A stretch of DNA of 17,452 nucleotides from Alphaproteobacteria bacterium (GTDB lineage: Bacteria; Pseudomonadota; Alphaproteobacteria; Micavibrionales; Micavibrionaceae). The notes under the pieces are model-generated. The model had not been told where the DNA came from and searched no databases. It saw nothing but the letters and a program-made list of their open reading frames with translations. Positions within the stretch are counted from its first letter, which is position 1. Every line of letters begins with the position of its first letter. The stretch covers positions 1-17,452 of the forward strand of contig JAGLKS010000196.1 in the NCBI GenBank assembly GCA_023140905.1, read 5' to 3'. Below are positions 3,228-17,224 of this stretch, piece by piece. The translations under genes were made by a program, and so were the position numbers.

Positions 3228-3259
3228 AAAAGAGCCTGAAAATCTCAGGCTCTTTTTTA
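3228..3259. terminator. Bidirectional hairpin terminator between convergent genes
   Basis: AGAGCCTGA (3231-3239) pairs perfectly with TCAGGCTCT (3245-3253) around the five-base loop AAATC. Flanking A and T residues extend the stem. On the plus strand it is followed by a run of T residues (canonical, ending the SPFH gene). On the minus strand the stem is followed by TTTT, so it can also stop transcripts leaving the pilin gene at 3281. Confidence 0.9.
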
Positions 3260-3280: not shown

Positions 3281-3982
3281 CTAGTTAATACGAACAGCAA
3301 GCGCACAAGTTACAGTATCAAGTGCTTCTAAATAAACACCAGCTGCATCAGAACAACCTGTGGCCCCACCAGCAGTACCAACAACAGAACCAGTTGCAGA
3401 ACTACCATCATCAAGCTTCCGATCAATCCGGCCAGCCTGTAACTGTGTCAATCCTACTGTGTCACCAATTGCCGCATCAAAACTAACGCCAAGGTAACGT
3501 CCGGCACGAGATGCTGCTGCGTTTGTACCCGCAATTCCTCCAGCACCAACATGTTGTCCGGGAACTAACATAACATTATTAATATCTGCACTTAAATAAC
3601 CGCTTGCTGTCAAACTACCCGATAATAGATCTGCACCAGATAAATGCTCATAAAACCACGCACTTTCAGCATTAATAACATTAGCCAAAGGCTCAGATTC
3701 CAAAGTACTATTGCCATTACCCTTATTAGCCACGTTAGGCACACGAGCTACAGCATCAGTCATATCTCCGGGAATAGCATCATACATATCCTGAAATGTA
3801 GCACTTGCAGCATCAACTGCTTTGATTTGTGCAATCGTAGCATTAACGCGGGCATTTTCGATCATTTCCTGACCTTTAAGTATACCACCGATCAATAGAC
3901 CAATGATAACCATAACCACAGCAAGTTCGACAAGCGTAAAGCCTTTCTCACTTTTTATGGATTTTGTGAAATGTGTATTCAT
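3281..3982 (-). CDS. Type IV prepilin (probable pilus subunit)
   Basis: This is a 233-residue prepilin. The class III signal is plain: a basic 14-residue leader ends in Gly14, and cleavage before Phe15 gives a mature protein starting FTLVELAVVMVIIGLLIGG with Glu at +5, the hallmark of type IV pilins. PilD (11590-12390) should remove the leader and methylate the new N-terminus. The rest of the N-terminal helix (about to residue 70) is followed by a variable Ala/Gly/Ser-rich globular region. Cys210 and Cys226 near the C-terminus could form the D-loop disulfide of type IVa pilins. AAGGAG stands eight bases before the ATG. It is the last gene of the pilus block, 276 bases downstream of a membrane AraC regulator. 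It may be the major subunit, but a major/minor assignment cannot be made from sequence. The mature length (219) is larger than many major pilins. Confidence 0.93.
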   Translation of the reverse strand: MNTHFTKSIKSEKGFTLVELAVVMVIIGLLIGGILKGQEMIENARVNATIAQIKAVDAASATFQDMYDAIPGDMTDAVARVPNVANKGNGNSTLESEPLANVINAESAWFYEHLSGADLLSGSLTASGYLSADINNVMLVPGQHVGAGGIAGTNAAASRAGRYLGVSFDAAIGDTVGLTQLQAGRIDRKLDDGSSATGSVVGTAGGATGCSDAAGVYLEALDTVTCALAVRIN

Positions 3983-4258: not shown

Positions 4259-5338
4259 TTATTTAATCATATTCTTGCGATAACCACTGGGACTTTGCCC
4301 CACCATATCCTTAAAGACACGATTGAAAGAAGGCACTGAATTAAACCCGACTTCTTCTGAAACAACCCTTATACTGGCTTTTGTCTCTATCAATAAGCGC
4401 TTGGAATCATCTATCCGGTGTTCATTAAGAAGCTGCGGGAAAGATTTCGAAAAATGGGTGTTGATAATGCGTGACGCTGAACCTTCCGATATCCCTAGCT
4501 CACGTGCAAGATCAGAACGCGAATAAGTCGGCTCATGATAAATCTTATCTAATGCAAACAAATCCTCAATCCGCTTTGCTAGAGCCTGGTCTTCTTGATT
4601 AAGACCGAATTCCCTACGCCCCTGATAAGGCAGAAACAAAGCCACTGGATAAATACGCAGTAAACTGGTCGAAACCAGATAAACAAAAGACAGTCCCAGC
4701 ACGGTACGCACTAAAGAAATATCGACACTAAAGTTAACATTGCTACCGCTTCGTAATGCCATCAGCCCCAAGAAAGCAACATTAACTATAATTAACGTCA
4801 ATATAAGCCAATACCGCTCTTTTCCTGCCTTTTGCTCTAATATATCAGCAAAAATGTTGCGACGAGTCCATATCATCAACAAACTAGCAGCCCCGGCAAT
4901 AACCCCCGTCACATTTAACCACTCGTATAATTCAGAACAAGTAGCAGCACTTTCCTGACTAACACCTTGTGTATAATGACTTGCAAAAAAAGCAGCCCCT
5001 AAAGCTAACGGCATAACAAGTAAAATCAACCAACTACGTAATGAAGGAAGAGTATGAATTTGTGATATTTGAATAATCAAAAGCACACCTAGCGGTGCTA
5101 TGAGTGTCCATGCTCCCCAACTAAATACATCATAATACACTGAAATATCTAAAAGGGATCTGCGTGCTAAATCAATAAAGAAAGCACAGCCAAGAGTAAA
5201 AAAATACATAAGTGGCAAAATCAACCTTACCACCGAGCCTTTTCTTACCTTGAAAGCAATATGCACCAACAGATAGACGCACTGAAACACGCCGATCAAA
5301 GATAACACTTCCGGTACTGTAAACCTCAATGAGTCCAT
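4259..5338 (-). CDS. Seven-helix membrane AraC-family transcription regulator
   Basis: This 359-residue protein joins a membrane sensor to a DNA-binding domain. About seven hydrophobic segments can be traced (roughly 10-30, 37-56, 72-92, 101-120, 138-157, 175-195, 207-226). After a linker comes a C-terminal AraC/XylS double helix-turn-helix (about 255-359) with LARELGISEGSASRIINTHF and the second-helix signature around VSEEVGFNSVPSFNRVFKDMVGQSPSGYR. It should bind DNA from the inner membrane and respond to a signal in or across it. It lies directly upstream of the pilin on the same strand, which makes the pilin promoter or the pilus operon its likely target (inference). No clear ribosome-binding site precedes the ATG at 5338, so expression may be low. 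An inverted repeat at 5382-5399 just upstream could serve autoregulation. Confidence 0.88.
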   Translation of the reverse strand: MDSLRFTVPEVLSLIGVFQCVYLLVHIAFKVRKGSVVRLILPLMYFFTLGCAFFIDLARRSLLDISVYYDVFSWGAWTLIAPLGVLLIIQISQIHTLPSLRSWLILLVMPLALGAAFFASHYTQGVSQESAATCSELYEWLNVTGVIAGAASLLMIWTRRNIFADILEQKAGKERYWLILTLIIVNVAFLGLMALRSGSNVNFSVDISLVRTVLGLSFVYLVSTSLLRIYPVALFLPYQGRREFGLNQEDQALAKRIEDLFALDKIYHEPTYSRSDLARELGISEGSASRIINTHFSKSFPQLLNEHRIDDSKRLLIETKASIRVVSEEVGFNSVPSFNRVFKDMVGQSPSGYRKNMIK

Positions 5339-6199: not shown

Positions 6200-6961
6200 C
6201 TAAAACTCACGCCTTACGAAATCAAAGCATGCGGCTAATAATACAAACAAAGAATAGATTGCTCCCTGACATAGCGCATAAACAAAATTATAATTGTCCT
6301 GAACGCCATAAATCAGCCACGAACTCTGTCCAAGTAAATCAAGACGCGGCGTAATAACCGAAACCATCTGCATGGCCATAGAATAAATCCCGTGACTATC
6401 TACAATTTCAGAATCAACAATACCTAATAGCTGGCCCATCAGCCGACCTAATACATAAACACCTAATGTAGACATTGCCGCACTCGAAGCACTGGAAATA
6501 TACATTGAAAAGAACAGGGCTATATTGACCATAATCACAGCTTCAACAATGATGCTTCCAACCCATAAAATATGGCCGTAACCAAATAATTGCGGAGAAA
6601 CCGCATAAACACAGACGCCAACGCCAACGCCTAATAAAATGCATAGAAGACTAAAAGCTAAAGCAAAGGAAAATATAATGCTCAAACGCCCGACAGGACG
6701 AGACAGTAAATACTCTATTTCTTTGCTTTCAAAAGCACGGCGGATAAAAAAGACAACAAATAATACCAATCCAAGAATTGAAACTATCCGCAAGCTTGCT
6801 CCAGCAAAAATCACAGTAAACTGGCTTTTTTCAACGATTGCAGCGCTGCCTAAAAATGTTGCAAGAGATGCTCCGACAATAAGTACAATTGCCAGCGATA
6901 ACATAAGCTTGTCACGCAATGCTGCCTTAAATACGTATTTCACCAATGGTGCAGAGAACAT
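6200..6961 (-). CDS. ABC-2 type transporter permease
   Basis: This 253-residue polytopic protein has about six hydrophobic segments (roughly 20-42, 52-74, 94-120, 130-155, 160-181, 226-247). Between the second and third lies a cytoplasmic stretch, RRAFESKEIEYLLSRPVGR (74-92), the coupling-helix pattern typical of ABC-2 permeases. It has no ATPase domain. The obvious partner is the lone ABC ATPase encoded at 13491-14243 on the same strand, separated by the TPR, pilD, pilT, pilU and mshL genes. The gene starts 46 bases after mshL and runs without a real gap into the helical-repeat gene. Known systems with this mix are the PilH/PilI pair needed for pili in Myxococcus xanthus and the Gld-type exporters. 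The substrate is unknown. The ribosome-binding site is weak (AGG about ten bases upstream). Confidence 0.8.
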   Translation of the reverse strand: MFSAPLVKYVFKAALRDKLMLSLAIVLIVGASLATFLGSAAIVEKSQFTVIFAGASLRIVSILGLVLFVVFFIRRAFESKEIEYLLSRPVGRLSIIFSFALAFSLLCILLGVGVGVCVYAVSPQLFGYGHILWVGSIIVEAVIMVNIALFFSMYISSASSAAMSTLGVYVLGRLMGQLLGIVDSEIVDSHGIYSMAMQMVSVITPRLDLLGQSSWLIYGVQDNYNFVYALCQGAIYSLFVLLAACFDFVRREF

Positions 6962-7007
6962 TTTTTCTGGAACCTATATTATATAGTAATTTCATTTAAG
7001 AATAATA

Positions 7008-8927
7008 CTATAACTTCAGAGGGCGACGATCCCCGGAGAAAGTCTTATACAAATCTCTGTCCGTATTATGAATAGTATCATTCGTCAAGTTAACCAAAGT
7101 CACCTTCAGAAAGATTACAAGCTCCGTCTTACTTATAGACCCTGAATTCCCCTTAAACAGGTTGCCCAATAAAGGAACCTCACCAAGCACAGGTACAGCT
7201 TGCTGCTCATTAGCAACCCTGTCCTGAAGAAGCCCTCCCATTACAATAGGCTGACCGGAATTAACTTTGATTACAGTGTCAATTTCCTGCACATTCACTT
7301 CAGGAATTGACGAAGTAATCCCCATACCAGCAGCCGCAGCAACATACAATATAGCCGGATCTTCCACAGTACCAACTACCCTCGTTATTGTCGGACGGAT
7401 ATGTACAGAAATTGTCCGGTCATCAAGATTAATAGACGGTTGAACATTAATTAGAACCCCTTCAGGAACAGTCTTAATCTCACTGTCAATATCCGTGCTT
7501 TGATCACCGGTATCATCGTCAGTCTCGGTGTCAACATCAAGATCAAAGAAAACCCTGTTTGTTGCGACATTCAACACAGCAGATTGGTTGTTAAGAACGG
7601 TCAAACGTGGGCTAGCCAATGCCCGCACAGTTCCAAATCCAGATATAGCCTGAACTAAAGTTCTAAAGTCGCTACCTACAATTCCCGTAACAAAATTAGT
7701 GTTTGCAGCAACAGTTCCACTTGCCGGTAACGTATCCAAAGCACCGGCACCGTACTCTTTAAATAAGTTCATATAAGATGCACCGGCACTTGTATAAAAA
7801 TTAGCCATGACATCCCCGCTATTAAGAAGCTGCCAATCTATACCGTTAATATATTCATCAAATAAACTAACTTCAAAAATCTTCGCCTCAACAAGAACCT
7901 GAGCTGTAACAGTACGTTTCAATTCTCTTAAATACTCTTCAACATGATTTTGCACTTTCTCGGAAGCATAAACATTAATCAGTCCAGCTTGCTTATTCAT
8001 GCTAAAGCTCATCTCTGAGCCACTGTCTTCCTGACTCCCGCTTTCACTTTCAATCGGGTCAACCGGCAAAGACTCAACACGCAACACAGCTTCAGGCGGC
8101 TGTACATTCACTGTACTATTCTCACCATTTTGTGAAATTTGCTGACTAGCTTGTGGAGAAACCGCCGCGACTTCAGGGTTTTGTTCAATAGCAGAAATAC
8201 GCGGATCATTTTTAGTTCTAAGTGTTTTTCCTGTTCCACTACCTAAAATCTGAGCCAAATTCACATCCAACTCGCCCCAAAAATCGGAGGTACTATCCGT
8301 GCTTGCAGAATACGCAGAACCGGTATCCGTGCCTTCTCCTGAGACAACAGAAATACTTGTACTTACAGACCCTGTATTAGAGCGAATAAAACTCAAGTAA
8401 TCAACTTTATATGTCTTGATGTAAGGTGTGTCCACCTCAACACGCAAGAACTGATCTTCCAGTTTATAGCGCAAACCTGCAACATTCGCGATACGATCAA
8501 TAACAACATCCAAAGGCTTGTTACGAGCTGTAAAAATAATTGCACCATGAATATTAGGATCAAGTTCCAAATCATATTCAGCCTGCTGCGCTAATTCATA
8601 CAAAACATCCCGCAAAGGAACAGACTGATTTACTGACACAGAAACAATCGGCATAGAGCGCATAGTTTCCGGTGTCAGAGAAATATAGGGCTGCAAATCA
8701 GGAATTGAAGCATTTCGAGACGCTATAGACTCGGTTTCTTCCGTTTCAGGCAACCGCTCTGCTAAGCCATCCCTAAAATCTTGAAGCTCCATATTTGATG
8801 CACGATCCGCTTTCGTATAATTTGCAGTAAGGTCACAAGACGACAAAATCAACGACGATACAACAAACAACGAAAATGTGCATATAACATAAGAAAAACG
8901 TACTGACGAATGCATATAGGAAAACAT
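7008..8927 (-). CDS. mshL: Type IV pilus outer-membrane secretin, MshL type
   Basis: This 639-residue protein should form the multimeric outer-membrane pore through which the pilus passes. A signal peptide ends in the lipobox LSSC, so Cys31 is the likely lipidated residue. An STN-type domain (about 96-165, around PLRDVLYELAQQAEYDLELD) is followed by KTYKVDYLSFIR, the stretch typical of MshL. Then come a Ser/Thr/Gly-rich linker (183-216), a further low-complexity Gln/Glu/Ser-rich stretch (245-308), an N-domain with LINVYASEKVQNHVEEYL (316-333), and the C-terminal secretin domain (about 430-612) ending with SGQPIVMGGLL, VPVLGEVPLLGNLF and KTELVIFLKV. An acidic insert at 462-483 is unusual. GGAG lies 11 bases before the ATG; Met5 is an alternative start. 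It follows pilU after a 218-base gap and probably has its own promoter. Confidence 0.93.
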   Translation of the reverse strand: MFSYMHSSVRFSYVICTFSLFVVSSLILSSCDLTANYTKADRASNMELQDFRDGLAERLPETEETESIASRNASIPDLQPYISLTPETMRSMPIVSVSVNQSVPLRDVLYELAQQAEYDLELDPNIHGAIIFTARNKPLDVVIDRIANVAGLRYKLEDQFLRVEVDTPYIKTYKVDYLSFIRSNTGSVSTSISVVSGEGTDTGSAYSASTDSTSDFWGELDVNLAQILGSGTGKTLRTKNDPRISAIEQNPEVAAVSPQASQQISQNGENSTVNVQPPEAVLRVESLPVDPIESESGSQEDSGSEMSFSMNKQAGLINVYASEKVQNHVEEYLRELKRTVTAQVLVEAKIFEVSLFDEYINGIDWQLLNSGDVMANFYTSAGASYMNLFKEYGAGALDTLPASGTVAANTNFVTGIVGSDFRTLVQAISGFGTVRALASPRLTVLNNQSAVLNVATNRVFFDLDVDTETDDDTGDQSTDIDSEIKTVPEGVLINVQPSINLDDRTISVHIRPTITRVVGTVEDPAILYVAAAAGMGITSSIPEVNVQEIDTVIKVNSGQPIVMGGLLQDRVANEQQAVPVLGEVPLLGNLFKGNSGSISKTELVIFLKVTLVNLTNDTIHNTDRDLYKTFSGDRRPLKL

Positions 8928-9004
8928 GATTCAGATTACTCCAAAGTCCCAGATATAAATCATAAAGGTATAATTAGTATAAATATATTGTCATGAGAAA
9001 CACA

Positions 9005-9043
9005 GTGCGAACGCACCAAAACCGATTCTACATAGGTATTATA
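9005..9043 (-). promoter_or_regulatory. Possible mshL promoter with operator-like palindrome
   Basis: In the 218-base gap between pilU and mshL the minus strand has a perfect TATAAT (9038-9043), but no good -35 box 16-18 bases upstream. About 22 bases downstream lies GTGCG-AA-CGCAC (9005-9016), a five-base inverted repeat that could be an operator or a small RNA hairpin. Activator dependence would explain the missing -35 box. The rest of the gap is AT-rich with nothing else recognised. Confidence 0.35.
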
Positions 9044-9145
9044 AGTGGAAAAATTACGAAACGCCATGGTTTCTTTTACTTTTTAAACAACTAAAAATTA
9101 GTATAGTCTATGAGATATAATAATTATTGCCGCGCAATTTATAAA

Positions 9146-10288
9146 TTATTCACTTAAATAAATTCTCGAGGTGTCGATTGTTTCCAAGCCACTTCGATCA
9201 CCCGGACCGGATTGTTTCACAAGCTTTGCCTGCTCTACCTTAATTTTCATGTCCGATGGCCTGTCCGAATTCGTAATAGCGGTATCTTCTGTAATCTTAT
9301 CATCCACGAATAACCGCATAAGCGACTGGTCAAAAGTCTGCATTCCGATAGAATTATTCTGCTCCATCACATCATGGATTTTTCCGATTTCTCCTTTCAA
9401 AATCAACTCGCGAACCAAACCTTGATTAATCATAATCTCAATAGCCGGAACCATTTCACCAGAAGAACTGGGCAATAATCGCTGAGATACTATAGCCTTA
9501 AGATTCATCGATAAGTTTAAACGAATTTGATTGTGAAAATCTTCAGGAAATAAGTTAACAACGCGCTCAATCGCCTGATATGCGTTATTCGTATGTATTG
9601 TTGCCAGACATAAATGTCCGGTTTCAGAAATTGTCAAAGCCTGTTCCATCACATCACGGTCACGAATTTCTCCTACCAGAATAACATCAGGGCGCTGACG
9701 CAAAGAATTTTTCATTGCCGTCGAATAAGACTCTGTATCAACACCGATTTCACGCTGAGTTACAACACAGCCCTGATGATCGTGATAATATTCAATCGGG
9801 TCTTCAATCGTAATAATATGTCCCTTGGAATTTTTATTGCGGTGGTTAACCATCGCCGCCAATGTCGTCGATTTACCCGAACCTGTTGGGCCGGTTACCA
9901 TAATCAGCCCTCTTTTTTCCATAGATAAACGTGCCAAAATTTCCGGCAAACACAGATCTTTAAAACTTGGGATACTTGAGATAATCCGTCTAATAACTAG
10001 CGCAGAAGACTGCCTTTGGCGCAAAACATTAACACGGAAACGTCCATGTTTACCCATATCCAGCGCCGTATTAAGTTCCATTTGTGTTTCAAAATCACGC
10101 CGCTGACGATTTGTTAGAACTGAAGCCAATATTTCTTCAATTTCATCAGCACTCATCGGCTTATCTTCAAGCTCAATAAACTCACTTTCACCACGTAATG
10201 TCGGGGGAAACCCCACCGTCAGATATATATCCGATGCTTTATGCGTCTCCATAGCACTTAAATACTCAAAAATTAGTGGTGTATTCAA
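9146..10288 (-). CDS. pilU: Type IV pilus retraction ATPase PilU
   Basis: PilU is the second retraction motor protein of type IV pili, a cytoplasmic hexameric ATPase that assists PilT. Of the 380 residues, the N-terminal PAS-like domain contains KASDIYLTVGFPPTLRG (17-33). The core has Walker A GPTGSGKS (133-140), the Asp box ITIEDPIEYYH (159-169), Walker B DVILVGEIRD (201-210) and the His box HLCLATIHTNNA (225-236). MNLKAIVSQRLLP (261-273) and the replacement of the PilT AIRNLIRE motif by LVRELILKG (291-299) favour PilU over PilT. The start appears to be TTG, overlapping the pilT stop by four bases (TTGA), which suggests translational coupling. An in-frame ATG at codon 13 would remove conserved N-terminal residues. 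The C-terminal tail after about 340 is basic and variable. Confidence 0.92.
   Translation of the reverse strand: MNTPLIFEYLSAMETHKASDIYLTVGFPPTLRGESEFIELEDKPMSADEIEEILASVLTNRQRRDFETQMELNTALDMGKHGRFRVNVLRQRQSSALVIRRIISSIPSFKDLCLPEILARLSMEKRGLIMVTGPTGSGKSTTLAAMVNHRNKNSKGHIITIEDPIEYYHDHQGCVVTQREIGVDTESYSTAMKNSLRQRPDVILVGEIRDRDVMEQALTISETGHLCLATIHTNNAYQAIERVVNLFPEDFHNQIRLNLSMNLKAIVSQRLLPSSSGEMVPAIEIMINQGLVRELILKGEIGKIHDVMEQNNSIGMQTFDQSLMRLFVDDKITEDTAITNSDRPSDMKIKVEQAKLVKQSGPGDRSGLETIDTSRIYLSE
9870..9895. repeat. 26-base exact repeat, copy in the pilU P-loop
   Basis: The minus-strand bases coding TGPTGSGKS in pilU are identical over 26 positions to 11063-11088 in pilT, including every third codon position. 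The flanks diverge at once. Confidence 0.85.
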
Positions 10289-11472
10289 AACGAGTACCCC
10301 TCTTCTTTTTTGCTGCTACTTCCGCTAGATTTTTTTTTACTCCCACTGCCGGTTGCTTTCGGAGAAGGATCATCTTCATAAGATATTTTTCCGCCACCAA
10401 AGGCTCCGGCAGCATAATCCTCGTCGCGCTCGTCATCCTCTTCCGAGGTTTTAATTAACACACGCCGAGCTTCGTCTTTGTCAATAACGCCAGCCTCCAA
10501 CAAATCACTGATTGCATCATCCATAGTAATCATTCCATAACGCGATCCGGTTTGCATCATCGAATACATTTGTGGGATTTGGTTTTCACGAATCAAGTTA
10601 CGTACAGCATTCGTCCCAACCAGAATCTCAAAAGCACCAACACGCCCAGAACCATCTGCACGCCGTAACAAGGATTGTGAAACGACTCCCTGAATCGAGC
10701 TGGAAAGCATCGCACGCACCATCTCTTTATCCCCAGTCGGAAACACATCAATTATACGATCAATTGTCTTAGCCGCAGAATTAGAGTGCAACGTTCCATA
10801 GACCAAGTGTCCTGTTTCCGCAGCGGTCAGAGCAAGAGAAATCGTTTCATGATCGCGCATTTCTCCCACTAGAATAACATCAGGATCTTCACGCAATGCA
10901 CTTTTTAATGCCCGCGCAAAGGTCTTTGTATCTTGTCCAACCTCACGGTGATTAACTAAAGATCTTTTGGAGTTATGAAAGAATTCGACAGGATCTTCAA
11001 CAGTAAGAATATGCTTAGCCTGATTCATATTAATATAATTAATCAAAGAAGCCAGCGTTGTTGATTTACCCGAACCTGTTGGGCCGGTCACAAGAACTAT
11101 ACCTTTCTCAAGTTCAGCAAATCGGCGCATAATCGGAGGAAGATCAAGCTCTTCTATTGTTGGAATTTCAGTTGGGATTGTCCGAAATACAGCCGCTGTT
11201 CCCAAGCGCGTTGTAAAACCATTAACACGAAAACGAGCTTTTTCTCCTAAAGCAATCGCAAAATCCAGCTCCATATTCTTTTCATATTCCGCACGCTGCT
11301 CTTCCGTCATAATCGAGTAAAGCATTGCACGAATATCATCACTGCCTAAAGCCTCTCCTTTTACGCGCTTAAGATGACCACTCACGCGAATAATAGGCGG
11401 ATTCCCTGAACTTAAATGCAAATCGGATGCATCATTTTGCATCGTAAATGCTAATAGCTGTGTTAAATCCAC
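10285..11472 (-). CDS. pilT: Type IV pilus retraction ATPase PilT
   Basis: PilT depolymerises the pilus by driving pilin subunits back into the inner membrane. I place the start at the GTG at 11472: AAAGGAG (11481-11487) stands eight bases upstream, and the resulting N-terminus, MDLTQLLAFTMQNDASDLHL, matches the family. A GTG at 11499 would add nine untypical residues. With 395 residues the order is Walker A GPTGSGKS (130-137), Asp box TVEDPVEFFH (157-166), Walker B DVILVGEMRD (198-207), His box HLVYGTLHSNSA (222-233) and AVRNLIREN (289-297), the PilT-specific motif. Typical PilT is near 345 residues. Here about 50 extra residues form a tail, first acidic, then Gly-rich, then Ser/Lys-rich and ending KKEEGYSF. 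pilU overlaps the stop by four bases. A promoter candidate lies upstream. Confidence 0.95.
   Translation of the reverse strand: MDLTQLLAFTMQNDASDLHLSSGNPPIIRVSGHLKRVKGEALGSDDIRAMLYSIMTEEQRAEYEKNMELDFAIALGEKARFRVNGFTTRLGTAAVFRTIPTEIPTIEELDLPPIMRRFAELEKGIVLVTGPTGSGKSTTLASLINYINMNQAKHILTVEDPVEFFHNSKRSLVNHREVGQDTKTFARALKSALREDPDVILVGEMRDHETISLALTAAETGHLVYGTLHSNSAAKTIDRIIDVFPTGDKEMVRAMLSSSIQGVVSQSLLRRADGSGRVGAFEILVGTNAVRNLIRENQIPQMYSMMQTGSRYGMITMDDAISDLLEAGVIDKDEARRVLIKTSEEDDERDEDYAAGAFGGGKISYEDDPSPKATGSGSKKKSSGSSSKKEEGYSF
11063..11088. repeat. 26-base exact repeat, copy in the pilT P-loop
   Basis: This is the partner of the copy at 9870-9895. Both encode TGPTGSGKS in the same frame and on the same strand, about 1.2 kb apart. 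Confidence 0.85.
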
Positions 11473-11480
11473 CGTTACTA

Positions 11481-11487
11481 CTCCTTT
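11481..11487 (-). promoter_or_regulatory. Ribosome-binding site deciding the pilT start
   Basis: AAAGGAG on the minus strand lies eight bases before GTG at 11472 and inside the longer open frame that begins at 11499. It supports the shorter protein. Confidence 0.8.
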
Positions 11488-11534
11488 ATTACCAAACACT
11501 CAAAAACAACAAAGACTCATTTTCCGATAAAAAT

Positions 11535-11563
11535 ATTATACTCTGACTTTATGGTTCATCTAA
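11535..11563 (-). promoter_or_regulatory. Candidate sigma-70 promoter for pilTU
   Basis: On the minus strand TTAGAT (11558-11563) and a perfect TATAAT (11535-11540) are separated by 17 bases, in the 117-base space between the pilD stop and the pilT GTG. The -35 box matches only half of the consensus. A start near 11528 would give a leader of about 55 bases. Confidence 0.5.
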
Positions 11564-11589
11564 AAAATGAAGCAAATACAAAAAATTTG

Positions 11590-12390
11590 CTAAAACAATA
11601 TAGCACTATCTCCCGTAGTTATAAAAGATTCCTGATACAACAACATCAGAAAAAAAGCAGCTATCAAGGAAGGTCCGAAAGGAAAAACCTCTTGTCCTCG
11701 AACCAACCGCCAAAATAATGCAAAACCAAAAGCCAGAACACCGGAAAGAATTAAAAAATAGGGTAATGCCGCAAGCCCCAACCACAGTCCGGCTACAGCA
11801 AAAAATTTCACGTCACCAAACCCTAAACTTTCTTTATTCAGAACCCATCCGACCAGAGCACCGACACTCCATGACAAAAAACTAAATAAGAATGCAGCAA
11901 AAATATAATTTATTGCAAGATCGGCCCCATCCGCCCCGGCAAAACCTTCAACACTCCATAAATATAATAACCGAAGCATTCCTAGAACAAAAAGCACCAA
12001 AATAAGCTGATTAGGCAAAATCATATGTTTTAAATCTATCAAAGCCAATGCCACTAAGAAAGGAATAGCAATACAAGCAAGCCCTCCCAAGACAGTAAAC
12101 CCATAGGAATAGTAAGCAGCCAGACACAATCCAGCGCAACTCAGCTCGACCAACGGATAAAATATCGGAATTTTATTGCTACAATGACGGCATTTCCCGC
12201 CACTTAAACACCAAGAGAAAAACGGAAATAAATCACGACATCTCAAGACACTGCCACATGAAGGGCAAGAAGAACGTTTTGTCCCCCAAGAAATATCACG
12301 CGGCACCCGGTAAATAAGGGCAGTCGCGAAACTACCGAATATCAATCCCAAGAAAAGCACTACAAAAATTTCAGCTATAATATCCATCAT
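11590..12390 (-). CDS. pilD: Prepilin peptidase and N-methyltransferase PilD
   Basis: PilD is the inner-membrane aspartyl protease (A24 family) that cleaves prepilin leaders and N-methylates the mature subunit. Counting 266 residues from the ATG at 12390, the N-terminal GSFATALIYRVPRD motif (19-32) precedes a cytoplasmic zinc module with CPSC (42-45) and CRHC (67-70), the hallmark of bifunctional enzymes. The two catalytic aspartates are Asp119 in ALIDLKHMILPN and Asp193 in GFGDVKFF. FPFGP is at 236-240. Several membrane helices surround these. The frame continues upstream to a TTG at 12423 with a weak AGG before it; that start adds 11 residues (MLWVKARITRG) and cannot be excluded. The natural substrate encoded here is the prepilin at 3281-3982. 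It sits between a TPR gene and pilT. Confidence 0.94.
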   Translation of the reverse strand: MMDIIAEIFVVLFLGLIFGSFATALIYRVPRDISWGTKRSSCPSCGSVLRCRDLFPFFSWCLSGGKCRHCSNKIPIFYPLVELSCAGLCLAAYYSYGFTVLGGLACIAIPFLVALALIDLKHMILPNQLILVLFVLGMLRLLYLWSVEGFAGADGADLAINYIFAAFLFSFLSWSVGALVGWVLNKESLGFGDVKFFAVAGLWLGLAALPYFLILSGVLAFGFALFWRLVRGQEVFPFGPSLIAAFFLMLLYQESFITTGDSAILF

Positions 12391-12450
12391 ACCCCGCGTT
12401 ATCCGCGCTTTAACCCACAACAAAACAAACCTGACTAATAAAAAAGCCGA

Positions 12451-13377
12451 CTAACGAAGTTGAGCCAACCGCTCATAGACAACCTCCCGCGGGATAGAAC
12501 GTCCACCCCCGTTTATAGTGTCAATTTCCAGTGCTTTCTCATAATATGAAATGGCTTGTTTTTTATCCCCTGCTTTATCAGCAATCACAGCCATATTAAA
12601 TACATGGTTTGCATTAGCCGGTTCCATACTCGCAGCAACACCAAGATATTTAATAGCGTCTTGTGTTTCACCAAGAGATGCATAACAAACAGCAATCTGT
12701 GCCGTTAAACCAACGTTACTCTTATGGTCCACATGTAAATCCAATAATTGTCTTAGCGCAATAGAAGGAAAGCGTGTTGAAAGAAGACCAAGCATATTAA
12801 TTTTCACTTCAAGGTTATCCGGTGCCACTTCCGATAACTCTTCATACATCCCCATAGCTTCTTCAAACCACCCAAGCTTTTGCAGCACAACAGCACGTCC
12901 CATAAGAACACGAGGATCTTTCTTATTTTTCTCATAAAGCACATCAAATAACGATAAAGCGGAATCATAACGGCCCAAAGCCATTGCACGTTCAGCCGAT
13001 ACTAAATGAGCTTCTTTTGTATCAGGTTCATAATTCTTTTTTACAATCACTAATTTTGAAGCAGGTTGAAGAACAGGATTTACAGGATTCGGACCACCGC
13101 GTGCCATTTCGCCTTGCGGTACTAAGTCCTCTGCATCAAAAAACATTTGATTGTTAAAGGCCTTGTTTTTCGACTGCGCCTCTTCCGCAGCATTATCATA
13201 TTCAAAAACATGAGGATCCGCCTCTCCTTGTGCACTAACATCAGCATCAGAACCGGTACCTGACGAAACCTCAGACAAAGCACCTTGGGCTATTGCCGGT
13301 ATTATACCCAGCGTCACATATGCACATAAAAAAACAGCACTATACAGAATAAAAGTGAATACACGGAACACAGACAT
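12451..13377 (-). CDS. Exported tetratricopeptide repeat protein of the pilus locus
   Basis: This 308-residue protein begins with a hydrophobic segment (about 7-29) that looks like a signal peptide with a possible cleavage site after AIA (28-30). If it is not cleaved, this is a membrane anchor. A low-complexity acidic stretch (35-105) follows. From about 121 to 290 there are four to five TPR units, for example SAERAMALGRYDSALSLFDVLYE, RAVVLQKLGWFEEAMGMYEEL and NMAVIADKAGDKKQAISYYEKALEID. TPR proteins of this kind assist secretin assembly (PilF/PilW pilotins) or belong to MSHA systems (MshN). Residues before the cleavage site do not form a lipobox, so a classical lipoprotein pilotin is unlikely. 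It lies between the ABC ATPase and pilD genes. GGAAG stands about 11 bases before the ATG. The role is inferred from architecture and place. Confidence 0.85.
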   Translation of the reverse strand: MSVFRVFTFILYSAVFLCAYVTLGIIPAIAQGALSEVSSGTGSDADVSAQGEADPHVFEYDNAAEEAQSKNKAFNNQMFFDAEDLVPQGEMARGGPNPVNPVLQPASKLVIVKKNYEPDTKEAHLVSAERAMALGRYDSALSLFDVLYEKNKKDPRVLMGRAVVLQKLGWFEEAMGMYEELSEVAPDNLEVKINMLGLLSTRFPSIALRQLLDLHVDHKSNVGLTAQIAVCYASLGETQDAIKYLGVAASMEPANANHVFNMAVIADKAGDKKQAISYYEKALEIDTINGGGRSIPREVVYERLAQLR

Positions 13378-13415
13378 AACAACAAATCTTCCAATGATTA
13401 ATAATGCGAGAAAGC

Positions 13416-13437
13416 GCAGATTTCAGAACAAATCTGC
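13416..13437. promoter_or_regulatory. Hairpin upstream of the TPR protein gene
   Basis: GCAGATTT (13416-13423) and AAATCTGC (13430-13437) form a perfect eight-pair stem with a six-base loop in the 113-base gap between the ABC ATPase stop and the TPR start. No T-run follows on the transcribed (minus) strand, so it is more likely a processing, stability or operator element than a terminator. Confidence 0.45.
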
Positions 13438-13490
13438 AGAAAAAGAAAATACACAGCGAATCAACTACGTACCTAACTTGGGTTATAGTA

Positions 13491-14243
13491 TCATACTAAG
13501 CAATACTGCTCAATAAATTCGAGGTAGGCTTGTTCAAGATATCCCTTATTTGTGCGCTTTTTAAGCTCATCTGGAGTGCCAATATAACAAATCTTCCCTC
13601 CATGCAATATCGCCACACGATCACAGATTTCATCCATATCAGCTAATATATGAGAACTAAGAAATATGGTGCGTTCATGGGACCGTATATCTAAAATCAT
13701 CCTCTTAACCAATGCACGTGCCTGAGGGTCCAAACCACTCATAGGCTCATCAAGAATAAACAAAGAGCACCCGGTCAATAACGTTCCCATAAGCCCAAGC
13801 TTCTGACGCATTCCCTTTGAGTATGTGTGCATCCTACGGTCTAATGCTTGTGTATCCAAAGCTAATTTATGTGCCGTCTCAATCACATCCTGACGATTAA
13901 ACGGGCGTTTATAAAGCTCAAGCGAGAATTTTATAAACTCCATCCCCGTTAGAAACCACGGTGGCTCAAACTTTTCAGGCAGATACGCTAATTTTGCCTT
14001 ACTTTCCTGTGAGGTCTTGTCTTTCCCAAAAATAAAAATATCTCCGTCACGTTGCCGGCGAAGACCTAACACCGCTTTAATCATGGTTGTTTTTCCAGCA
14101 CCATTCAGCCCCATCAATCCGAATATTTCGCCGCCGCATAATTCCAGATTAATGTCCTCAATAACCGGAATATCGGTGTAAGAGACGCTAACGTCCTTTA
14201 AAATAAGAGGAGAAGATACATCACCATCGCGCTGTTTTGTCAT
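13491..14243 (-). CDS. ABC transporter ATPase of the pilus locus
   Basis: This is a single 250-residue ABC nucleotide-binding subunit. Walker A GLNGAGKT (45-52), Q-loop region around YLPEKFEPPWF (87-97), signature YSKGMRQKLG (141-150), Walker B LFILDEP (161-167), D-loop SGLD (169-172) and the switch His198 in SSHILADMDEICDR are all present, so it should be active. The YSKGMRQ signature is of the kind seen with ABC-2 permeases and Gld-type exporters. I chose the ATG at 14243: AGGG lies nine bases upstream, whereas the TTG at 14249 has only three bases of spacing. No permease is adjacent. The only candidate is encoded at 6200-6961 on the same strand. Its position between alignment-complex and TPR genes suggests a role in pilus building, as PilH has in Myxococcus; the substrate is unknown. 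Confidence 0.9.
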   Translation of the reverse strand: MTKQRDGDVSSPLILKDVSVSYTDIPVIEDINLELCGGEIFGLMGLNGAGKTTMIKAVLGLRRQRDGDIFIFGKDKTSQESKAKLAYLPEKFEPPWFLTGMEFIKFSLELYKRPFNRQDVIETAHKLALDTQALDRRMHTYSKGMRQKLGLMGTLLTGCSLFILDEPMSGLDPQARALVKRMILDIRSHERTIFLSSHILADMDEICDRVAILHGGKICYIGTPDELKKRTNKGYLEQAYLEFIEQYCLV

Positions 14244-14302
14244 AAACAATAGCCCTACTATGTCTAAAAATTTAAAGAGAAATGATACCGTAATCCCAAT
14301 TT

Positions 14303-14947
14303 TTAACCGGGAAGAAAAATCCTCATATCCAGATTAAATCGCTGATGTGCTCGAAGACGCAAAGGGAAAATTTGATCCGTATAGTCATCAAACCACTTAA
14401 CCTCTATATAATCCTCATATACTTGCAGATCAAGAGCTTCCACGGGAAGAGCGTCCGGAGTCACACGTTTACCATTCAACCAGATTGTCCAATCATTTTC
14501 ACCATTATAAACAATTCCACCCAAAGTTACATAACGCCGTTTCGGATCAAATTTCAATTGCCGACCTTCTTCCAGCGCTTTTAACTCTTCTGCGCTAAGA
14601 GGCCGTGCTTTACCATGGGAATTCTTGGCGTCAATAATTGACTGGTGTTGCCAATAAGTGAAAAATAACGAAGGCATTTTATCAATCGAAGCATCCCAGC
14701 TTTTATTAATCTTTTCTGTTAGTTGTAAAATTTTTACTTCTCTAGCAACCTTAAAATCATTTACTTCCACCGCAGAATCACTATCAGCCTCTTCAGTATC
14801 AATGGCAACATCTTCAGACTGGAATACGCTTTCAATACTATCCTGTCGTGCGTAAGCAACGCCACCAGCGACCCACATACAAAAAAACATGCCTACAAGA
14901 ACAGCGGCTAACACCATGTCCATTATTGCAAATCTTTTGTGTTTCAC
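14303..14947 (-). CDS. PilP/MshK/GspB-like inner-membrane protein
   Basis: This 214-residue protein is anchored by one helix (about 11-29). A Glu/Asp-rich linker (38-65), a helical stretch (65-130) and a small C-terminal beta domain (about 137-214) follow. That domain, around RRYVTLGGIVYNGENDWTI and WLNGKRVTPDA, then VYEDYIEVKWFD, resembles the C-terminal folds of PilP, MshK and GspB/GspC, which link the inner-membrane complex to the secretin. The similarity is my reading of pattern, not a database match. Its place after the PilO-like gene is exactly where PilP or MshK is expected. I chose GTG at 14947 because GGAAGGGAG stands seven bases upstream; a TTG at 14971 overlapping the preceding stop has no such site. 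PilP is usually a lipoprotein, but no lipobox is seen here. Confidence 0.78.
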   Translation of the reverse strand: MKHKRFAIMDMVLAAVLVGMFFCMWVAGGVAYARQDSIESVFQSEDVAIDTEEADSDSAVEVNDFKVAREVKILQLTEKINKSWDASIDKMPSLFFTYWQHQSIIDAKNSHGKARPLSAEELKALEEGRQLKFDPKRRYVTLGGIVYNGENDWTIWLNGKRVTPDALPVEALDLQVYEDYIEVKWFDDYTDQIFPLRLRAHQRFNLDMRIFLPG

Positions 14948-14954
14948 TTTAATA

Positions 14955-14963
14955 CTCCCTTCC
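14955..14963 (-). promoter_or_regulatory. Strong ribosome-binding site deciding the PilP-like start
   Basis: GGAAGGGAG on the minus strand lies seven bases before GTG at 14947 and inside the longer open frame that begins at 14971. It supports the shorter protein. Confidence 0.8.
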
Positions 14964-14967
14964 AACC

Positions 14968-15615
14968 TCAACGCGCTATACCGGATTTATCCAGCACCTG
15001 ATTTTCAGGAATCATTGTACGCCATAGGAACTCCACTTCAGCCGTAACAATCTCAGGACTTGCTCCATTTGCAATTGCACGAAGTAATGTTGTACTGATA
15101 TCTTTTTCCCTTCGTACGCTAACATGCTCCAATGACACAAAACCGGGGAAAACTTTCTGTACCAAGTCGATATAATGATAAACATCATTATCATCAAACG
15201 CCTTAATTCTTACACTCACGTCACTGATAAGAAGTTTATGCTTTGCTTTCTTTGTCCCATCATTTTCTTCTACGTAACCGGGTTTCACACTTACATGTGC
15301 TGAAATAATACGGGATTTTTTCTGAATAAGGCTAAAAATATCTTTGGCATCGGCACGATCTTGTGCGGAAAAAAAACCTTTTTCTTTAATTTCGTCAAAA
15401 CGCTCCTGCTGATGGTCAAGTTGATCAAACTCAATTTGCATTTGTTCAACATCATTTTGCAAAGAAGAAAGTTGGCTACGTTGTCCCCTTAGCTGACGCA
15501 TAACAGTCTGATATTCCGGCGTTGCATACATATAAACGACCGCAGCCAGCGTCACATTAAACGAAGCCAAAATCACTAAAACCACTACACGCTTAACGCC
15601 AATAATGTTAATCAT
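14968..15615 (-). CDS. PilO/MshJ-like pilus alignment protein
   Basis: This 215-residue bitopic protein has one N-terminal membrane helix (about 8-28), a coiled coil rich in Gln, Leu and Glu (about 35-78), and a periplasmic alpha/beta domain (about 98-200) with the ferredoxin-like pattern VSVRIKAFDDNDVYHYIDLVQKVFPGFVSLEHVSV. That is the architecture of PilO, MshJ and GspM, which pair with PilN or GspL. The upstream gene supplies that partner. I chose ATG at 15615, which overlaps the preceding stop by eight bases; a TTG at 15621 would add two residues but spaces GGGG too closely. Family similarity at residue level is weak, as is usual for PilO, so the call rests on architecture and gene order. 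The overlap implies coupled translation and fixed stoichiometry. Confidence 0.82.
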   Translation of the reverse strand: MINIIGVKRVVVLVILASFNVTLAAVVYMYATPEYQTVMRQLRGQRSQLSSLQNDVEQMQIEFDQLDHQQERFDEIKEKGFFSAQDRADAKDIFSLIQKKSRIISAHVSVKPGYVEENDGTKKAKHKLLISDVSVRIKAFDDNDVYHYIDLVQKVFPGFVSLEHVSVRREKDISTTLLRAIANGASPEIVTAEVEFLWRTMIPENQVLDKSGIAR

Positions 15616-17224
15616 CGACAATCGGCCCCTTTATCTTAATCTCTGCGACATAATCTTGAGCTGAAACTTGAGAAGGAGCTCCTCCAGTTTCTACAACAAT
15701 TTCCTTACTATACTCATAATCTTCAAGCAACTTGACTACCTCAACAACATGTTCCGGCAATAATCTTTGTAACTTCTCACCTAAAGCACGCACCTCCTCA
15801 TTTCCTTTTTGAGTATCCGTGCTGCTCGGAAAAGTCATTTGCATATTTGCCCAGAATAAAGGTTCTCCCTTATCTTTATCACTGCTGTTTTTATAACTAA
15901 ATCTCCCGATATCATCATTAGGATCACCACCACGCGTCACCTGTATCTGATCGATACGCATATCGCGCCCCAAAGATTCACCAATCTTGGTAAATAAAGG
16001 AATTACCGATATTTGATTTTCCTCAAGATGATCATACACACTCAACGCCCCTTGAATAAGTTCAATATCAAAACCGAGTTCTCCTTTGCGCTTAACCTCT
16101 TTGTCATATTGAAGTTTTAACTGCGCTGTACGATGCCGGGCAACTTCGTAATTATCATTTTCTTCTGTTAGCTTTTGATAAATATCAACACATTGATAGC
16201 ATTGAAATGCTCCGCCAAGAATCATCAAAAGAATCGCTAAAACAGCCACTTGGCGCGGTTGAGACACCGAATCAACTTGTTTAGCCTTCATGGGCAATAT
16301 AAATTTATTTTTTCTACCGATCCATGCGACATGTAACACATCCGCAAAAAAATTATCGCCGCTACTTTGTTTGCCTAATTTAACAGATAGAATGTGTGCA
16401 ACATCATCCGCAGAGACAGAATGGAAATCACACGAAACATCAAGTAATTCGCCGACCTTCTCGCCCATCCGGGATTCAGAAACTAAAATAACATTAAGCC
16501 CGTCCTCCTCATCAAAGCCAAAACGGGACAGATAGCTCATAGTTGCCTGAAATTCCTGATTCACCTCATCAGCCCAGCTTTCCGAATCAGCTTCTGCAAT
16601 TGAAGTCATCCGCGTAAGAGCCAATTCACCATCTTTAATCACAATCTGGCGCAATCCCCCGCCACGATGCTGTCCCATAAAGATGGTCCAACGCGACTTT
16701 TTTTCACCCTTTGCACTAATTTTATCAGAAATCTTTTTGACCATATCAGAAGCTTCTATAGGCAAAAGCAACACACCAACAATCGGGGCCAATGATTTGG
16801 TCGCAGCCGCTAATGTTCTATCAAAAGCATCGGTAGAAGGAACTGCCGCAAATATATAAATATCACCAGCCATAGACTTATTGGTTTTTATGGCTTTTTC
16901 CTTAAGCGGCAAAGCGGCGCGCACAGAATAATTTGGAAAAGTTACATGCAGCTTCCTTTTAACAACGCTTTGCTTATCCAAGACACTAACGCGCGGAACC
17001 TTTTCTTTACGATAGTGCTGCTCAACCATGTCATTGACAATCAAGACAGGCTTTCCACCACATTCCTTGGAAATAAGCGATGCTACGTCATTTTCAAAAT
17101 TTTCAACAGACCAAGGCACTGTTTCAACCATTTTCACCCCACGAGCACTCGTAGAGTAAATAAACAGCGCATCATCTGAAATCAAAAGGACTGTTCTGGC
17201 TGGAGCTAATAGAGACAATGACAT
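15608..17224 (-). CDS. PilM-PilN fusion (GspL/MshI-like) alignment protein
   Basis: This 538-residue protein combines parts that are separate in classical type IV pilus operons. Residues 1-310 form a cytoplasmic domain of the actin-like PilM/GspL type, with alternating strands such as ARTVLLISDDALFIYS (9-24) and KPVLIVNDMVEQHYRKEKVPR (58-78). A membrane helix follows at about 325-343, then a coiled coil (345-385) and a periplasmic PilN-like alpha/beta domain (about 400-538) ending AEIKIKGPIVDD. The order PilM + helix + PilN equals the GspL layout of type II secretion, and MSHA systems have similar MshI proteins. It should couple the cytoplasmic ATPase and platform to the periplasmic ring together with the PilO-like protein encoded next, whose start it overlaps. 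The ribosome-binding site (GAAG) is weak and the leader is ATT-rich. The nucleotide-binding residues of PilM are not clearly recognisable. Confidence 0.82.
   Translation of the reverse strand: MSLSLLAPARTVLLISDDALFIYSTSARGVKMVETVPWSVENFENDVASLISKECGGKPVLIVNDMVEQHYRKEKVPRVSVLDKQSVVKRKLHVTFPNYSVRAALPLKEKAIKTNKSMAGDIYIFAAVPSTDAFDRTLAAATKSLAPIVGVLLLPIEASDMVKKISDKISAKGEKKSRWTIFMGQHRGGGLRQIVIKDGELALTRMTSIAEADSESWADEVNQEFQATMSYLSRFGFDEEDGLNVILVSESRMGEKVGELLDVSCDFHSVSADDVAHILSVKLGKQSSGDNFFADVLHVAWIGRKNKFILPMKAKQVDSVSQPRQVAVLAILLMILGGAFQCYQCVDIYQKLTEENDNYEVARHRTAQLKLQYDKEVKRKGELGFDIELIQGALSVYDHLEENQISVIPLFTKIGESLGRDMRIDQIQVTRGGDPNDDIGRFSYKNSSDKDKGEPLFWANMQMTFPSSTDTQKGNEEVRALGEKLQRLLPEHVVEVVKLLEDYEYSKEIVVETGGAPSQVSAQDYVAEIKIKGPIVDD

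What the first reader, a model, noticed from the sequence alone, without database searches (positions are those of the whole stretch)
6200..14243. An ABC transporter split across the type IV pilus locus
A complete ABC ATPase (13491-14243) has no permease next to it, and an ABC-2 permease (6200-6961) has no ATPase. They lie on the same strand about 6.5 kb apart, separated only by pilus genes (TPR, pilD, pilT, pilU, mshL). They are the only ABC parts in the window, so they probably form one transporter dedicated to the pilus. Myxococcus xanthus needs an ABC transporter (PilG, PilH, PilI) for type IV pili, but its substrate is not settled. An MSHA-like locus with an embedded, split transporter may be a second, distinct case.
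Basis: partly seen in the sequence, partly recalled or inferred. Interest (0 to 1): 0.7.

Follow-up and report, generated by a model that had tools for sequence, protein, structure and literature searches.

The report
Dedicated ABC transporter for a pilus
Bacteria related to the predator Micavibrio carry, inside the gene cluster for one kind of surface thread (pilus), the genes of a small ATP-driven membrane machine whose parts occur and evolve together, which points to an unstudied motor or exporter that serves the pilus.

The parts
13491..14243 (-). ABC ATPase subunit (alternative TTG start at 14249)
   Evidence: PF00005 E 1.6e-21; PDB relatives include NosF, E 1.2e-33; match at E <= 1e-35 in 121 of 142 genomes of the order
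6200..6961 (-). ABC-2 (NosY-type) permease subunit, 253 aa
5432..6196 (-). third part: 254-aa protein with one predicted N-terminal TM (21-39) and a probably periplasmic domain of no known family
   Evidence: next to the permease on its strand, downstream, in 80 of 82 order loci, 9 of 10 class loci and 17 of 20 phylum loci; no Pfam family over cut-off; TM by hydropathy; W101, W151, W189, Q78, G64 kept across classes
3281..3982 (-). type IV pilin, last gene of the operon
   Evidence: PF07963; followed by a bidirectional terminator-like hairpin at 3228-3256
4259..5338 (-). membrane-bound AraC-type regulator (about 6 TM plus HTH_18); its distances follow those of ATPase and permease
   Evidence: PF12833; TM count by hydropathy; partial correlations 0.44 with permease, 0.41 with ATPase, but only 0.10 with the accessory
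7008..8927 (-). MshL-like secretin, directly upstream of the permease
   Evidence: TIGR02519 218.5 bits, below cut-off 250.2; directly upstream of the permease in 82 of 82 order loci
9146..10288 (-). PilT/PilU-family ATPase, here called PilU by position
   Evidence: TIGR01420 419 bits, over cut-off
10285..11499 (-). PilT/PilU-family ATPase, here called PilT by position
   Evidence: TIGR01420 477 bits, over cut-off
11590..12423 (-). PilD prepilin peptidase (context)
   Evidence: named by sequence and position; not itself scanned; the profile-matched gene in L101 matches PF06750 and PF01478
12451..13377 (-). TPR protein (MshN-like by position)
   Evidence: TPR Pfam families
14303..14971 (-). MshK-like small protein (name by position; context)
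   Evidence: conserved order; no Pfam match
14968..15621 (-). PilN/PilO-like protein (name by position; context)
   Evidence: one TM and conserved position; no Pfam match over cut-off
15608..17224 (-). PilM/MshI-like protein (name by position; context)
   Evidence: conserved order; no Pfam match

Best explanation
The ATPase (two copies), the NosY-type permease (two copies) and the membrane-anchored 254-aa protein form one ABC complex dedicated to this MSHA-like type IV pilus. Shown here: predicted fold of the permease, intact ATPase motifs, joint presence, joint absence where the pilus locus is gone or reduced, joint evolution, and conserved linkage to pilin and secretin genes. Inferred: that the three proteins touch; the copy numbers; that ATP binding closes the ATPase dimer and drives the permease as in NosFY; that the accessory's periplasmic domain passes this to pilin (or to the pilin/secretin assembly site), helping pilin to be exported, matured or released for assembly, as reported for PilGHI in M. 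xanthus. The gene split is probably a derived arrangement; a compact permease-accessory-pilin-ATPase order is seen in four loci outside the class.
Against: No direct evidence of contact, transport or piliation. At class level the picture is less clean: of 9 permease-bearing genomes outside the order, G368 (80% complete) and G476 (99%) show no clear ATPase orthologue, and 16 of 385 genomes have an ATPase match at E <= 1e-35 without a detected permease, 15 of them weak (E >= 4.8e-44) and one (G453, E 3.3e-53) probably orthologous. One outgroup genome (G191) has permease and accessory without a strong MshL match, though next to a prepilin peptidase hit. In G143 and in the second copy of G443 the permease is not next to MshL. 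In 14 of 20 phylum loci no ATPase orthologue of 150 bits lies in the held stretch (one, L183, is cut off by the stretch end), and none of the 20 has an MshL-profile match next to the permease. Joint absence with the pilus still in place rests on one genome (G010). Negative partial correlations are in part forced by the method, and pairs inside the pilus machine score as high as ATPase-permease or higher (0.68).
Confidence: 0.72

Rival explanations
1. Mechanical engine, not a transporter: the complex moves nothing across the membrane, and the ATPase cycle drives the 254-aa periplasmic domain, which remodels pilin, secretin or peptidoglycan (NosFY-NosD, FtsEX or MacB style, as recalled), perhaps in support of retraction.
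For: Nearest fold is NosY of NosDFY; a one-TM accessory with a conserved soluble domain is tied to the permease; in G010 the two PilT/PilU genes are missing from the locus together with the transporter genes, and the best PilT match in that genome is 32% identical.
Against: PilGHI, the nearest functional analogue, is described as a pilin exporter (PMC3924187, PMC3724824, passages). Against a tie to retraction: in L032 (G037) PilD, PilT and PilU are missing from the locus while ATPase, permease and accessory remain (not sought elsewhere in G037), and the 32% match in G010 is a full-length 411-aa ORF, so a distant retraction-type ATPase may remain there. No structure of the accessory was obtained.
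Confidence: 0.3
2. Exporter or flippase of a small molecule or lipid used to decorate or release the pilin.
For: ABC-2 permeases mostly export lipids, glycans or small molecules (general knowledge); ABCA-type lipid transporters are the best PDB sequence matches of the ATPase.
Against: No glycosyltransferase or lipid-modifying gene among the genes of the window; other loci were mapped only with the window's own genes, so this was not tested there.
Confidence: 0.2
3. Not one transporter: the ATPase serves an unlinked permease and the permease an unlinked ATPase, and both merely sit in the operon.
For: The genes are split, and 2 of 9 permease-bearing genomes outside the order lack a clear ATPase orthologue.
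Against: Co-occurrence and joint absence, paired evolution, compact order in four loci outside the class, and the other seven stand-alone ATPases of G047 best match named systems.
Confidence: 0.07

Closest known systems
PilGHI of Myxococcus xanthus (pilAGHI operon)
   Same: ABC ATPase, membrane permease of similar length (a published deletion runs to codon 250 of pilI, PMC5544727 passage; here 253 aa), an accessory protein and the pilin in one neighbourhood; tied to type IV pili
   Different: There one operon with pilA (PMC3546991 passage); here split by pilus machine genes in an MSHA-like locus of Alphaproteobacteria; sequence orthology of the three proteins was not tested, PilG versus the 254-aa protein included
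NosDFY (serves nitrous oxide reductase; role recalled)
   Different: No nos gene in the window; no NosD family among the accessory's Pfam matches; pilus context
CcmAB and PmtCD ABC-2 exporters
   Different: Different context; 9 and 12% identity in those alignments
MSHA pilus locus of Vibrio cholerae
   Same: mshL-type secretin and a similar gene order (recalled)
   Different: No ABC transporter in that locus (recalled, not checked by a call)
GldA/GldF/GldG of gliding Bacteroidota
   Same: ATPase, permease and accessory in a surface-motility machine (recalled); the ATPase matches TIGR03522 at E 4.8e-36
   Different: 124.7 bits against a cut-off of 402.6; different machinery

Membership tests
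PilGHI-type pilus ABC transporters | ABC ATPase plus ABC-2 permease plus accessory protein as a set | tested here: met
PilGHI-type pilus ABC transporters | encoded together with pilin and pilus machine genes | tested here: met
   (pilin within 6 kb of the permease in 67 of 82 order loci, 5 of 10 class loci, 14 of 20 phylum loci)
PilGHI-type pilus ABC transporters | sequence orthology to MXAN_5780-5782 | not testable with these tools
   no M. xanthus sequence was reached; the 53 loci of the single genome-contig scan bear titles of Alphaproteobacteria, Rhodospirillales, Micavibrio or Proteobacteria only
PilGHI-type pilus ABC transporters | required for pilus assembly and pilin export | not testable with these tools
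   needs mutants
ABC-2 (NosY/CcmB-type) transporters | permease fold of that type | tested here: met
ABC-2 (NosY/CcmB-type) transporters | stand-alone ATPase with intact catalytic motifs | tested here: met
NosDFY | nos gene context | tested here: not met
   genes of the window
NosDFY | NosD-type beta-helix accessory | tested here: inconclusive
   no NosD family among Pfam matches of 68 aligned members; no structure predicted
MSHA-type pilus (TIGR02519 MshL) | secretin over the curated cut-off | tested here: not met
   218.5 against 250.2 bits, so called MSHA-like only

The most novel reading that the evidence does not exclude
A NosFY-type ABC complex, with a new family of periplasmic accessory protein, is a built-in ATP-driven mechanical part of type IV pili across Micavibrionales, other Alphaproteobacteria and a further class, working on pilin at the inner membrane and perhaps coupled to retraction, so that these pili use a further ATPase besides the extension and retraction motors.
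Probability: 0.3. Interest if true: 0.8.

Novelty: new variant of a known kind. Interest (0 to 1): 0.6.

Why it matters
What an ABC transporter does for a type IV pilus has, to my knowledge, essentially one experimental model, PilGHI of M. xanthus. Here is a widespread second setting, with a proposed three-part complex, a genome that lacks it while keeping much of the pilus locus (G010), a cultured predator that carries the locus (G047, M. aeruginosavorus ARL-13) and compact versions elsewhere that place a pilin gene inside the transporter cluster. That makes the open question of substrate or mechanical role testable, and it adds an unannotated part to a candidate attachment machine of predatory bacteria. 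A 2023 review of ABC transporters in bacterial nanomachineries (PMC10094684) has no occurrence of pilus, pili, PilH or Myxococcus (term search of the main text).

Tried and rejected
Rejected: (1) the permease as a mis-called non-ABC membrane protein: against its predicted fold. (2) A better partner for the ATPase elsewhere in G047: among the PF00005 matches, eight lie on open frames of 231-354 aa with 76 bits or more; besides the pilus ATPase these best match LolD, LptB, FtsE, a Mn/Fe importer, CcmA, MlaF and SufC (LolD and MlaF below their cut-offs; an FtsX next to FtsE and a permease next to MlaF were not confirmed). One weak match on a 176-aa frame (25.1 bits) and the longer, mostly fused or ABC-F-sized frames were not followed up, apart from two stretches (L205, L206). 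(3) L108's ABC hit (64 bits) as the orthologue: the alignment shows another ABC type; the strong match of G251 lies about 70 kb away on the same contig. (4) A conserved disulfide in the accessory: C235 and C250 are kept in 70 of 81 order sequences but in 0 of 9 class and 0 of 16 phylum sequences, so not a defining feature.

Led nowhere: promoter scan at chance level (32 found, 35.9 expected); an arbitrary half-site pattern TTTNAACC at chance (2 found, 4.0 expected); paper searches for Micavibrio or Magnetococc with type IV pil and ABC transporter (5 and 1 papers, none on such a system as far as titles and abstract starts tell) and for MshL or MSHA with ABC genes (2 papers; 203 papers, only 12 listed), all seen as listings only. 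The structure of the 254-aa protein was not obtained. Absence of a fold from the VIA-align list is not used as evidence.

Limits of counts: order gene maps come from 82 stretches of 81 genomes (G103 appears twice), out of 123 permease-bearing genomes; 10 class loci of 9 genomes; 20 loci of 15 genomes, out of 28 outside the class with a match at E <= 1e-10. ORFs were called by script (first ATG/GTG/TTG) and mapped with profiles grown from the window's own proteins, so unrelated genes in those loci were mostly not identified. In one search the 'PilU' row mixes PilT and PilU; one search separates them. The co-occurrence table was put together by hand from the listings.
Full report
What is there. 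The window holds part of an MSHA-like type IV pilus operon on the minus strand: PilM-like, PilN-like, MshK-like, ABC ATPase, TPR, PilD, PilT, PilU, MshL, permease, a 254-aa protein, a membrane AraC-type regulator and a pilin, ending at a bidirectional terminator-like hairpin at 3228-3256. Several of these names rest on position only (see parts). Both ABC genes are real. The ATPase has its catalytic motifs. The permease has no family match of its own, but some relatives match ABC-2 families and its model (pLDDT 86.7) has the NosY-type fold.

Where it comes from. G047, in the same family, has one contig of 2,481,983 bp, the published size of Micavibrio aeruginosavorus ARL-13 (PMC3189940, passage). 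The genome scan also returned records titled Micavibrio. The order is therefore taken as Micavibrionales (inference). The genome paper speaks of multiple dispersed pil genes and has no occurrence of 'ABC transporter', 'MSHA' or 'pilH' (term search of the main text).

Conservation of the arrangement. In 82 loci from 81 genomes of the order, MshL is directly upstream of the permease in 82, the 254-aa gene next to it downstream in 80, and an ATPase orthologue in the stretch in 72. The two without the 254-aa gene in place are a contig end (L041) and G066 (L067), where it lies on the other side of MshL. Of the ten without the ATPase, eight are stretches that hold under 5 kb upstream of the permease; the other two (G066, G074) carry the orthologue on another contig. 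A pilin is found within 6 kb in 67 of 82. The split is thus stable in this order.

Co-occurrence. Permease: 123 of 142 genomes, one match each. ATPase at E <= 1e-35: 121 of 142. Both 119, neither 17, permease only 4 (G004, G040, G061, G112), ATPase only 2 (G042, G056); all six discordant assemblies have at least 130 contigs. All 123 permease genomes have MshL at E <= 1e-63; of the 19 without permease, 16 have only weak secretin matches or none, two (G056, G108) have MshL cut at a contig end, and one is G010.

A natural absence. G010 (8 contigs, 100% complete) keeps pilin, MshL, TPR, MshK, PilN and PilM in the same place next to leuB/leuD, with a short PilD match, but ATPase, permease, 254-aa gene, AraC gene, PilT and PilU are not at the locus. 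Genome-wide there is no permease and no ATPase orthologue; the best PilT match is a full-length ORF of 32% identity on another contig, so a distant PilT-like ATPase may remain. Accessory and AraC were not sought genome-wide. This is one genome. Speaking against a strict tie to retraction, L032 (G037) lacks PilD, PilT and PilU at the locus and keeps the three transporter genes.

Paired evolution. I compared protein distance matrices across loci, regressing each pair on the mean of the other genes. ATPase-permease gives 0.60 (66 loci, 8 genes) and 0.54 (59 loci, 10 genes, Mantel p 0.001). Permease-accessory gives 0.37 and 0.33, ATPase-accessory 0.33 and 0.26 (Mantel p 0.001 and 0.002). Immediate neighbours from the two groups do not correlate: permease-MshL -0.19 and -0.39, ATPase-TPR -0.20 and -0.29. 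MshL, PilM, PilN, TPR and PilT form the other group. The AraC regulator goes with permease (0.44) and ATPase (0.41) but hardly with the accessory (0.10, p 0.078). Negative values are partly a product of the method; the positive blocks are the result. Pairs inside the pilus machine reach 0.68 (PilM-TPR), so the transporter signal is high but not unique.

Outside the order. In 385 genomes of the class, 13 have the permease; 9 of these are outside the order, in 9 families. Seven of the 9 have a clear ATPase orthologue (E <= 8.2e-46), two (G368, G476) do not. The ATPase search alone gave 27 of 385, of which 16 have no detected permease; 15 are weak and probably other ABC types, but G453 is probably an orthologue. 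In the 10 class loci the accessory is next to the permease in 9, MshL in 7, a pilin within 6 kb in 5. MshL is elsewhere in G143, and G191 has no strong match. With a wider profile, 53 of 398 genomes of the phylum match at E <= 0.001, 28 of them outside the class at E <= 1e-10. Twenty loci of 15 of these were read: accessory 17, pilin within 6 kb 14, ATPase orthologue 6, MshL-profile neighbour 0. Where the ATPase is seen it lies within 120 bp of a pilin in 5 of 6 and 1.07 kb away in the sixth; in L180, L181, L184 and L195 the genes run permease-accessory-pilin-ATPase. A pilin gene thus sits inside the transporter cluster, and the split order of Micavibrionales is best read as derived (inference from few loci).

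The third part. The 254-aa protein has one predicted TM near its N terminus behind a basic stretch, so its domain is probably periplasmic (inference), and no family over cut-off. Tryptophans 101, 151 and 189, Q78 and G64 persist across classes, so it is one family.

Other partners. In G047 eight ABC ATPases with clear matches are stand-alone by open-frame length. Seven best match LolD, LptB, FtsE, a Mn/Fe importer, CcmA, MlaF and SufC (LolD and MlaF below cut-off); permeases of LolD and CcmA were confirmed next door and two polytopic ORFs follow the Mn/Fe ATPase. The pilus ATPase is the one left without a named system. The weak matches and the longer frames were not gone through one by one.

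Comparison with the known. In M. xanthus PilI, PilH, PilG and PilA are encoded by one operon and PilG is annotated as an accessory factor (PMC3546991, passages). PilGHI are said to be essential for translocation of pilin across the inner membrane (PMC3724824, passages) and for pilus assembly and PilA export (PMC3924187, passage), each citing Wu et al. 1998, which I did not see. Homology-based hits to pilG, pilH and pilI were reported in almost all bacteria of one survey (PMC6060248, passages). The parts list and the pilin neighbourhood match; orthology could not be tested. It works like PilGHI (likely); whether it is a member is open.

Verdict. The mechanism (pilin handling, or mechanical work through the accessory) remains inferred.

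Noticed in passing
4259-5338: AraC-type regulator with about six predicted TM helices and a C-terminal HTH_18; its distances follow ATPase and permease (0.41, 0.44), it is missing from the locus in G010, yet also not detected in some loci that keep the transporter (L028, L029, L040).
   Followed up: partly
L111 (G010:C1:826000-845999): Pilus locus without PilT, PilU, ABC ATPase, permease, accessory and AraC but with secretin, pilin and PilM/N: a natural experiment.
   Followed up: partly
L105 (G443:C6, second copy): A second permease copy without the accessory gene next to it, several kb from two PilT/PilU-type genes on the other strand.
   Followed up: no
L047, L054, L072 downstream of the AraC gene: Three or four pilin-like hits in a row instead of one, suggesting pilin expansion in some lineages.
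   Followed up: no
3228-3256: Strong bidirectional terminator-like hairpin between the pilin operon and the convergent SPFH/NfeD genes.
   Followed up: no
P0275, P0312, P0326, P0339, P0349: Relatives of the permease in records named Sulfuricella, Noviherbaspirillum, Burkholderiaceae and Deltaproteobacteria; their gene context was not seen.
   Followed up: partly
L032 (G037), between TPR and MshL: PilD, PilT and PilU missing from the locus while ABC ATPase, permease and accessory remain; not checked elsewhere in G037.
   Followed up: partly
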